From Candidatus Nitrosopumilus sp. (GTDB lineage Archaea; Thermoproteota; Nitrososphaeria; Nitrososphaerales; Nitrosopumilaceae), in contig VMDM01000010.1 in the NCBI GenBank assembly GCA_008080815.1, positions 1-64,000 on the forward strand: 64,000 nt of DNA, read 5' to 3'. Of this stretch, positions 21,420-24,519 are shown piece after piece (the first letter of the stretch is position 1; every line of letters starts with the position of its first letter). The notes below the pieces were generated by a model. That model was given only the letters and a program-made list of their open reading frames with translations, did no database searches and was not told the origin of the DNA. The position numbers and the translations under genes were made by a program.

Positions 21420-22022
21420 TCAAAATGAATTTTCAAATGCAACTTCATCTAATGGAAGTTGTCCACCTCTACTCATTGGTTCTCCGATTCGCTTTCCAAT
21501 CACTACCATTAATGCGATGATGTGATTTTCTGGGAGTTTAATTATCTCTGCTAATTTTTCATAATCAAAACCTATCATGGGACAGGAATCTAAATTCATA
21601 TGTTTTGCAGCCAACATTATACTTTGAGCAGCAATACTACAAGAACGAATTGCTTCATCTCTAATATTTTGAGGATTGTTAGAGTACTTGACTTCAAGAG
21701 ATTTTTTTACTAGTTCTCGTCTTTCTGGTGGATGATGCATCCAATATCTAGTGGGATCTTTATTCCAAGCATCTAAATCTGCACACAATACAATTACAAG
21801 AGAACCATCTTTTGGTTGAGGTTGATCTTTGGCAGCAATTGAAATTTTATTTTTAATCTCCTGCTCAGTAGTAAAAATAAATCTCCAATTTTGTTGATTG
21901 TAACTTGTTGGTGAAAGAATTACGTGTTCTAGTAAAGTTTTGATTTCATCAGTGCTCATTTTATGAGAAGGATCAAATTTTTTAACTGCACGTCTAGTTT
22001 TTAGTGCTTCAAAAACATCCAT
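21420..22022 (-). CDS. Nitroreductase-family flavoprotein
   Basis: FMN-dependent NAD(P)H oxidoreductase fold, 200 aa. The N terminus MDVFEALKTRRAVKKFDP carries the Arg-Arg pair that contacts FMN. LLEHVILSPTSYNQQNWRFIF is the conserved FMN-binding helix and Asn-rich turn. The C terminus has IGKRIGEPMSRGGQLPLDE. Substrates of this family range from nitroaromatics to quinones, so the physiological substrate is unknown. ATG at 22022. Confidence 0.88.
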   Translation of the reverse strand: MDVFEALKTRRAVKKFDPSHKMSTDEIKTLLEHVILSPTSYNQQNWRFIFTTEQEIKNKISIAAKDQPQPKDGSLVIVLCADLDAWNKDPTRYWMHHPPERRELVKKSLEVKYSNNPQNIRDEAIRSCSIAAQSIMLAAKHMNLDSCPMIGFDYEKLAEIIKLPENHIIALMVVIGKRIGEPMSRGGQLPLDEVAFENSF

Positions 22023-22068
22023 GTTTTTTCCAGAGTCATACCAAATTTAATGTAAATGAAAAGACACC

Positions 22069-22210
22069 TGAGATTAAGGCTCAAACCTCAATGGCGTAGA
22101 GCGACATCTCTGCTTAAGGTCGATACCAAGGGTAATCGACGACAGCAACTTAAGATCTGAAACGTTAGTAACAGATGACAGTTTGTCTTTCCATTGACAT
22201 TTGGCGCCAA
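22069..22210. ncRNA. Candidate structured noncoding RNA (strand unresolved)
   Basis: A stretch visibly richer in G and C than its surroundings, with no good reading frame, folds on paper into a closed multi-branched structure. TCAATGG (22088-22094) pairs with CCATTGA (22191-22197). Inside lie a six-pair hairpin 22096-22101/22108-22113 (one G-U); CTTAAG 22113-22118/22149-22154 stacked on GTCGAT 22119-22124/22135-22140; ATCTG 22155-22159/22172-22176; and GACA 22177-22180/22184-22187. A short TGAG/CTCA hairpin (22069-22083) and the palindrome TTGGCGCCAA (22201-22210) flank it. It does not match tRNA, and I do not see RNase P or SRP RNA signatures. The helices are my own pairing by eye. Confidence 0.55.
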
Positions 22211-22270
22211 TATTATTTAACTAGTGGTATTTTGAATAACTAGTGCTAAAAAATTTATCTCCAGATAGTC

Positions 22271-22278
22271 TATTTATT
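22271..22278 (+). promoter_or_regulatory. TATA box of the flavoprotein gene at 22303
   Basis: TATTTATT lies 28 bp (centre) upstream of the TTG at 22303, the distance expected when the transcript starts at or just before the start codon. This supports the non-ATG start. Confidence 0.55.
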
Positions 22279-22302
22279 ACACTGAAATGAATTCAAAATG
22301 CT

Positions 22303-23316
22303 TTGAAAATTGCAGTAATGGGAATGGGTGTTGCCGGTTCTTACCTCATGGCGAGACTAAAGGACTCTGAACACGAAGTTGTAGGTTATGAATTAAATCC
22401 GCAAGAAAGACATGACTCTATTTGTGCATGGGGAACTATCAAACCAATTTTATCAGAATATTGTAAAAAAACAGGTAGAGATTTTAATGATTTTCTAATT
22501 CATGATGGAAAAAATATGCATGTGAAGATGAATGACGGAGTAAAATTTGATATCGGATTACATGGACTCTGTACTTACAATAAAATTGGATTGATCAAAG
22601 ATTTTATCAAAGATTCAAAAATTATCTATGGAAAACCACCTTCTTTAGAAGAACTAGAAAAAGAATATGACATGATTGTTGATTGTACAGGATTTCATAG
22701 AGTCTATTTACCAAAATTAAAAGAAGATTTCTTTTTACCTACTTATGAATACAAAGTTGAATATGAAGACAAGGTACCATATGATGATTTTTACATAGAG
22801 CCATTTCCAGGAATGTCTGGATATTTTTGGTATTTCCCATTAGGTGAAAAATGGGCACATATTGGTGCAGGTGACTACAATAAACAACATATCAAAGCTA
22901 CCGATGAATTTCTAAAAAAACATGGAGGTAAAGTAGTGAAAACCAAAGGTAGACCAATCCGATTAGCAACACCAGACAGATGCAAACCATATTACTCAGG
23001 TAAAGTTGTAGGTGTAGGAGAATCAATTGGCACTGTATATGCTTTGCTTGGTGAAGGAATTATCCCATCCATGCAATGTGTTGAATTATTCATTGAAAAT
23101 ATGCATGATTTCAAAGCTTATGAAAAAGCAGTTGAAGAACATTACAAAGTGTATGCTAAGGTTTTCAATTTTGTAAGAGCTAAAATTAAAAAAGATTTCA
23201 ATTTCCTCAAATCACTTCCTGACTTTTTTGCAATATTCAGATACATGAAAAAGAATGAAGATAGGTTTGGAATGGATATCAAAATTGCAGATTTGCTTAA
23301 AGTGGCAAAAGCTTAA
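22303..23316 (+). CDS. Geranylgeranyl reductase-like FAD-dependent oxidoreductase
   Basis: Flavoprotein with an N-terminal Rossmann dinucleotide site (MGMGVAGSYL, glycines 7, 9 and 12) followed by ERHDSICAWGT. A central GMSGYFWYFPLGEKWAHIGAGDY resembles the substrate domain of geranylgeranyl reductases, and GKVVGVGESIGTVYALLGEGI is the second FAD-contact region. Family members saturate the isoprenoid chains of archaeal lipids or reduce related prenyl compounds. 337 aa; a shorter, divergent relative of GGR, so lipid reduction is inferred. TTG start; the only nearby upstream ATG is out of frame and soon stopped. Confidence 0.8.
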   Translation: MKIAVMGMGVAGSYLMARLKDSEHEVVGYELNPQERHDSICAWGTIKPILSEYCKKTGRDFNDFLIHDGKNMHVKMNDGVKFDIGLHGLCTYNKIGLIKDFIKDSKIIYGKPPSLEELEKEYDMIVDCTGFHRVYLPKLKEDFFLPTYEYKVEYEDKVPYDDFYIEPFPGMSGYFWYFPLGEKWAHIGAGDYNKQHIKATDEFLKKHGGKVVKTKGRPIRLATPDRCKPYYSGKVVGVGESIGTVYALLGEGIIPSMQCVELFIENMHDFKAYEKAVEEHYKVYAKVFNFVRAKIKKDFNFLKSLPDFFAIFRYMKKNEDRFGMDIKIADLLKVAKA

Positions 23317-24369: not shown

Positions 24370-24414
24370 TTTCAACAAATGAATATATTCTAAAGAATTT
24401 CAATTTTTAAAAGT

Positions 24415-24501
24415 AGCCCGATAGTCTAGCGGTCAAGGATTCTGCCCTCTGGATCATAGAGTGGATAGGCGGAGACGGCAGTTCGAATCTGCCTCGGGCT
24501 A
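24415..24501 (+). tRNA. tRNA-Gln (CTG) with intron
   Basis: Acceptor stem AGCCCGA pairs with TCGGGCT; discriminator A at 24501. The T arm is GGCAG-TTCGAAT-CTGCC. The anticodon stem CTGCC (24442-24446) pairs with GGCGG (24468-24472, one G-U). The anticodon CTG is at 24449-24451. A 14-base intron (24453-24466) interrupts the loop at the canonical archaeal position between bases 37 and 38. The CCA end is not encoded. A TATA-like aatatatt near 24381-24388 may be its promoter. Confidence 0.93.
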
Positions 24502-24519
24502 TCAAAAATTAAAATAAAC

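What the first reader, a model, noticed from the sequence alone, without database searches (positions are those of the whole stretch)
22069..22210. Candidate structured RNA in an otherwise gene-free gap
A GC-rich island in an AT-rich 280-bp gap folds, by my own pairing, into one closing helix (22088-22094 with 22191-22197) enclosing four helices that are almost directly adjacent (22096-22113, 22113-22154, 22155-22176, 22177-22187). This packing is unlikely for random AT-rich DNA. No tRNA, RNase P or SRP signature was seen. Walker-era annotation of Nitrosopumilus reported a few unassigned ncRNAs, so it may be known but uncharacterised.
Basis: partly seen in the sequence, partly recalled or inferred. 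Interest (0 to 1): 0.75.

Follow-up and report, generated by a model that had tools for sequence, protein, structure and literature searches.

The report
New three-armed small RNA in Nitrosopumilus
The gap holds a real gene for a small non-coding RNA, read from the minus strand and built from three copies of one hairpin unit that also occurs as separate small RNA genes across the Nitrosopumilaceae, a family of abundant ammonia-oxidizing archaea, and that matches no catalogued RNA family.

Summary
On the minus strand (about 22194-22056) an 11-bp closing helix encloses three hairpins, each with the same asymmetric internal loop (UNUC-R / Y-CUUAA). The same gap in 46 other Nitrosopumilaceae contigs holds a homologue. 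In a structure-blind alignment 31 of 47 pairs change on both sides; 0 of 500 shuffles reach that. G-U outnumbers A-C 112 to 11 in the hairpins, a TATA-like element lies about 27 nt upstream and a U-rich tract follows, so the minus strand is very probably the one transcribed. A model of one hairpin finds 4-13 copies in each of 12 closed Nitrosopumilus genomes: three here, the others mostly single-hairpin genes with their own TATA box and often a shared upstream element. None was found outside the family in samples of the order and phylum, in Rfam 15, or in the open literature searched. The nearly invariant sites lie in the internal loop, so that is the probable functional site. Best guess at mechanism: trans-acting RNAs whose loops bind a common partner, most likely a protein, with the three-armed RNA as multivalent scaffold or decoy. 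The RNA gene is close to certain; the mechanism is inferred.

The parts
22056..22194 (-). three-armed small RNA gene (predicted transcript, about 139 nt)
   Evidence: MFE -45.2 kcal/mol, z -4.2, four-way junction; covariance model match 22051-22195 (-), 103 bits, E 6e-20 (the window is one of the 40 training sequences)
22184..22194 (-). closing helix, 5' arm (AUGGAAAGACA)
   Evidence: pairs with 22056-22066; 9 of 10 closing pairs modelled change on both sides across 47 homologues in a model-fitted alignment; 6 of 10 in the structure-blind alignment, which misplaces this helix
22056..22066 (-). closing helix, 3' arm (UGUCUUUUCAU), U-rich, merging into a T-rich putative termination tract
22147..22183 (-). 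hairpin module 1; internal loop 22177-22179 (GUC) opposite 22151-22154 (CUUA)
   Evidence: module model match 22146-22184, 41.0 bits
22112..22146 (-). hairpin module 2; internal loop 22141-22143 (GUC) opposite 22115-22118 (CUUA)
   Evidence: module model match 22110-22148, 41.4 bits
22070..22110 (-). hairpin module 3; internal loop 22103-22105 (GUC) opposite 22075-22078 (CUUA)
   Evidence: module model match 22070-22110, 38.9 bits
22213..22220 (-). TATA-like element (TTAAATAA) of the RNA gene, about 27 nt upstream of the RNA 5' end
   Evidence: sequence; same position in the homologues
22221..22246 (-). upstream promoter region, a degenerate form of the CTAGTAGAAATNATNAGTA element of relatives
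22043..22050 (-). separate TATA-like element (TTAAATTT) in front of the downstream nitroreductase gene
   Evidence: sequence, conserved in relatives that have that gene
21420..22022 (-). nitroreductase-family gene (neighbour, not part of the RNA; absent next to the RNA in several relatives)
   Evidence: PF00881, E 9.5e-27
22303..23316 (+). FAD oxidoreductase, geranylgeranyl-reductase-like; conserved divergent neighbour
   Evidence: PF04820/PF22578 weak matches; synteny

Best explanation
This is an independent small non-coding RNA gene of Nitrosopumilaceae, transcribed from the minus strand from its own TATA promoter and ending at a U-rich tract. SHOWN by comparison: its fold is a closing helix around three hairpins, each carrying the same internal loop (5' UNUC-R 3' / 5' Y-CUUAA 3'); the same hairpin also forms one-module and two-module elements elsewhere in the genomes, many of them behind a shared promoter-like element. 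INFERRED: that these are transcribed; that the internal loop is a binding site for one common partner, most likely a protein; that the genes are co-regulated and their RNAs act in trans, the three-armed RNA offering three sites at once as scaffold or decoy, in the manner (not by the ancestry) of CsrB/RsmZ RNAs. The identity of the partner and the process served are not known. The confidence given is for the whole statement with its mechanism; for the RNA gene, strand and fold alone it is about 0.95.
For: Same gap, same fold in 46 other Nitrosopumilaceae contigs. Covariation: 31 of 47 pairs with double changes on the MAFFT alignment, 0 of 500 shuffles, against 9-17 pairs when partners are slid; 39 of 47 on the model-fitted alignment. 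Strand: in the hairpins 112 G-U against 11 A-C cells (all helices 147 against 40). TATA-like element at a near-fixed distance upstream, U-rich or oligo-T tract after the element. Persists where the nitroreductase gene is absent (L043, L045). Module model: 4-13 copies in each of 12 closed Nitrosopumilus genomes, none in six other genomes of the order. Shared upstream element: 47 of 67 unique matches are followed by a module, and four more on inspection. The loop is nearly fixed while stems and apices vary: U 120/120, U 120/120, C 115/120; CUUAA 116-119 of 120 each. All 13 varying stem pairs of a 34-module set change on both sides.
Against: No transcript data were available. No binding partner is known. 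A fixed internal loop could instead serve RNA-RNA contact, a small ligand, or assembly. The neighbours of single-module genes share no theme. Some Nitrosopumilus genomes (for example G021, G030, G101, G005) show no match, so the RNA may not be indispensable. The promoter survey is biased because the loci were fetched for their modules.
Confidence: 0.45

Rival explanations
1. The hairpins are base-pairing regulatory RNAs: their loops or single-stranded parts pair with target mRNAs, and the internal loop only stabilises or tags them.
For: Single-module genes share a partly conserved apex (AAC-UAAYC-GUU), and small trans-acting RNAs commonly act by pairing.
Against: In the three-armed RNA the apex of modules 2 and 3 varies while the internal loop does not; little conserved sequence is unpaired.
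Confidence: 0.2
2. A dispersed mobile or repeat element that happens to be palindromic, without function as RNA.
For: Several copies per genome; modules recombine within the locus (module 2 lost in L075, module copies converted in L093 and L101).
Against: G-U against A-C bias points to selection on one RNA strand; several loci are conserved in place across species, the plastocyanin locus across genera; compensatory changes throughout; promoter-like element at a near-fixed distance.
Confidence: 0.07
3. A 5' leader or riboswitch of the nitroreductase gene on the same strand.
For: The RNA lies upstream of that gene on the same strand and ends about 34 nt before its start codon.
Against: The gene has its own TATA-like element after the RNA; the RNA persists where the gene is absent; the same module occurs in loci with unrelated neighbours in mixed orientation.
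Confidence: 0.05
4. The internal loop binds a small ligand or metal, or is a receptor for tertiary RNA contact, so that the RNAs sense, store or assemble rather than bind a protein.
For: The loop is small, asymmetric and nearly invariant, as in ligand-binding or tertiary-contact motifs.
Against: No conserved tetraloop partner and no linked gene function; the loop does not match the 11-nt GAAA receptor sequence.
Confidence: 0.2

Closest known systems
CsrB/CsrC, RsmX/Y/Z decoy RNAs of gammaproteobacteria (comparison from general knowledge)
   Same: Small trans-acting RNAs built of repeated hairpins with one invariant short motif; several co-regulated RNA genes per genome.
   Different: The invariant motif here is an asymmetric internal loop (UNUC/CUUAA), not GGA in hairpin loops; archaeal; no partner identified; closed by an outer helix into a four-way junction.
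Archaeal box H/ACA guide RNAs
   Same: One to three hairpins with an internal loop each.
   Different: The internal loop is 3/4 nt and nearly fixed in sequence rather than a variable guide pocket; in the hairpins read no ACA box follows the lower stem.
Archaeal box C/D RNAs and kink-turns
   Same: Short asymmetric internal loop between two helices.
   Different: No UGAUGA on the RNA strand in any of 40 homologues (34 have it on the opposite strand); no tandem G-A/A-G as a kink-turn needs.
11-nt GAAA tetraloop receptor (UAUGG/CCUAAG)
   Same: Superficial likeness of CCUAAG and YCUUAAG.
   Different: An extra U, no UAUGG opposite, no conserved GNRA loop.

Membership tests
Any Rfam 15 family | covariance model match at gathering score | tested here: not met
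   Gap: no match even at E up to 5; ten homologous and paralogous loci: only tRNAs and sub-threshold matches outside the RNA
tRNA / tmRNA | tRNA fold found by ARAGORN or Rfam | tested here: not met
Box C/D sRNA | box C (RUGAUGA) on the transcribed strand | tested here: not met
   UGAUGA in 0 of 40 on the RNA strand
Box H/ACA sRNA | ACA box just 3' of the lower stem, variable guide pocket | tested here: not met
   Internal loop 3/4 nt and nearly invariant; lower stems of single modules are followed by AAU-rich/T-rich sequence, not ACA (read by eye)
Kink-turn | tandem sheared G-A and A-G pairs after a 3-nt bulge | tested here: not met
   Loop sequence UNUC/CUUAA holds no such pairs
CsrB/RsmZ-type decoy RNA | repeated identical motif in several hairpins | tested here: met
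   Three modules with the same loop
CsrB/RsmZ-type decoy RNA | GGA motifs in hairpin loops bound by CsrA/RsmA | tested here: not met
   The conserved motif is UNUC/CUUAA in an internal loop and apices vary
CsrB/RsmZ-type decoy RNA | sequesters a regulatory protein | not testable with these tools
   Needs binding experiments
Protein-coding gene | conserved open reading frame | tested here: not met
   No ORF of 50 aa in the gap; homologues differ by indels not in threes
Cis-acting leader of the nitroreductase gene | constant linkage to the gene downstream on the same strand | tested here: not met
   RNA present without that gene in L043, L045 and others

The most novel reading that the evidence does not exclude
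An undescribed class of archaeal small RNAs, limited to Nitrosopumilaceae, built from one, two or three copies of a single hairpin with a nearly invariant UNUC/CUUAA internal loop, forming a co-regulated set that controls or assembles around one unknown partner in these dominant ocean nitrifiers.
Probability: 0.5. Interest if true: 0.8.

Novelty: new variant of a known kind. Interest (0 to 1): 0.66.

Why it matters
Nitrosopumilaceae are among the most abundant cells in the ocean and drive nitrification, yet little is known of their RNA-based regulation. This defines a conserved RNA gene with a predicted strand, ends and fold, a family of single-hairpin relatives behind a common promoter-like element, and one nearly invariant internal loop to mutate. 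That makes the partner and function directly testable, and the two covariance models would let the genes be annotated in most genomes of the genus.

Tried and rejected
Plain DNA similarity found few relatives, which would have suggested no conservation; synteny through the neighbouring gene solved this. The first MAFFT alignment misplaced the closing helix (62% paired); the model-fitted alignment corrects it (83%) but leans towards the structure, so both are reported. Suspected that the 35-45 bit extra matches were tRNAs; ARAGORN found none, and most proved to be single modules. Considered leader of the nitroreductase gene, riboswitch, C/D, H/ACA, kink-turn, tetraloop receptor, mobile element: see rivals and membership test. 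Looked for a functional theme among the neighbours of single modules: none. Literature searches gave nothing relevant; a Red Sea dRNA-Seq paper (PMC5069720) covers Thaumarchaeota, but its data sets could not be read.

Full report
WHAT IS THERE. The gap 22023-22302 lies between a nitroreductase-family gene on the minus strand (21420-22022) and a divergently read FAD oxidoreductase, weakly similar to geranylgeranyl reductases (22303-23316). It holds no ORF of 50 aa. That is suggestive only: on a composition-corrected scan several windows inside protein genes are more extreme. Rfam 15 has no match, even at E up to 5.

HOMOLOGUES. DNA similarity alone finds only fragments. Following the neighbouring oxidoreductase gene into 80 contigs shows that many Nitrosopumilus gaps of about 300 bp hold a related element. 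Read on the minus strand it has a closing helix and three hairpins, each with CUNUC-R on the 5' side and Y-CUUAAG on the 3' side. With the bounds taken from the relatives, the window's minus strand folds into a four-way junction at -45.2 kcal/mol, z -4.2; the plus strand gives -38.3.

COVARIATION. On a MAFFT alignment of 40 homologues that knows nothing of structure, RNAalifold predicts the three hairpins, with 21 of 30 pairs showing compensatory change. For the full structure 31 of 47 pairs change on both sides; no shuffle of 500 reaches that, and slid versions give 9-17. On the alignment fitted to the model, 39 of 47 do and the closing helix is 83% paired; this one leans towards the structure. 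The shuffles do not keep relatedness, but the slid versions do.

STRAND AND GENE. In the hairpins 112 cells are G-U and 11 are A-C; over all helices 147 and 40. Since A-C on this strand would be G-U on the other, the minus strand is the RNA. A TATA-like element lies at a near-fixed distance upstream in the homologues, and a U-rich or oligo-T tract follows. The RNA stays where the nitroreductase gene is missing (L043, L045), and that gene has its own TATA-like element. So it is most likely a gene of its own. No transcript data were at hand.

A FAMILY OF MODULE RNAs. A model of the whole RNA finds one strong match in most Nitrosopumilus genomes (84 of 95 have some match at E up to 0.1) and in a second genus, with weaker ones in further genera. 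Weaker second matches proved to be other loci: type II RNAs with two usual modules and a different middle hairpin (L150, L152, L153, L154), two-module RNAs (L148, L149), and single hairpins. A 41-position model of one module finds 4-13 copies in each of 12 closed Nitrosopumilus genomes and none in six other genomes of the order. In 222 genomes of the order and 299 of the phylum, which overlap in part, every listed genome with a match lies in the one family (Nitrosopumilaceae, by the names of the named contigs). Single modules mostly have TAAATA about 36 nt before the UNUC, which puts the expected start near the foot of the hairpin, and lie beside unrelated genes in mixed orientation. Many share the upstream element AAATNATNAGTA with the three-armed RNA; of 67 unique promoter-like matches in the held DNA 47 are followed by a module, and four more on inspection. 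The loci had been fetched for their modules, so this is biased, but other genes in the same DNA hardly show the element.

HOW IT PROBABLY WORKS. Across 120 modules of the three-armed RNA the loop is U 120/120, N, U 120/120, C 115/120, opposite C 116, U 119, U 116, A 119, A 118, while stems change by compensation and apices drift. So the internal loop is the likely functional site, repeated three times here. A common partner bound by that loop, probably a protein, with the three-armed RNA as a multivalent scaffold or decoy, fits best; base pairing, ligand binding and tertiary contact are not excluded. The partner and process are unknown.

COMPARISON. It works perhaps like CsrB/RsmZ RNAs but lacks their defining GGA loops. 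It is not a tRNA, C/D or H/ACA RNA, kink-turn or 11-nt receptor by the tests listed. Nothing in the open literature searched describes it; most subscription papers are not held, and the N. maritimus genome paper was not seen, so an earlier bare annotation of this locus remains possible.

Noticed in passing
L164, L169, L182, L202, L207, L221, L222 (centre of each locus): A single-module RNA gene lies divergent to a plastocyanin-like gene in several species and at least three genera, the most widely conserved single-module locus seen.
   Followed up: partly
L150, L152, L153, L154, L147, L156: Type II relatives of the RNA: first and third modules canonical, the middle hairpin replaced by another one (in most GAGACCAAA...UUGGAAUCAG).
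   Followed up: partly
L075:2764-2873, L093:2725-2873, L101:1109-1260: Signs of recombination between modules: module 2 missing in L075, near-identical modules 1 and 2 in L093, copied flank between modules in L101.
   Followed up: no
L161:3001-3184 and L215 near 2540: In two loci a single module is followed by a second conserved GC-rich hairpin (GCGGUUCAGRCCCKGAGGGGAAACYCAAGUCUGARC).
   Followed up: no
L075 (NZ_LFTY01000001.1): A 1.04 Mb scaffold titled Candidatus Rhodobacter lobularis encodes an 86% identical Nitrosopumilus protein and this RNA, so the record is probably mislabelled or a mixture of symbionts.
   Followed up: no
window 24414-24503 (+): ARAGORN calls a tRNA with an undefined identity and a four-base anticodon (ctgg), possibly a Ser/Leu-type or intron-bearing tRNA misread.
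   Followed up: no
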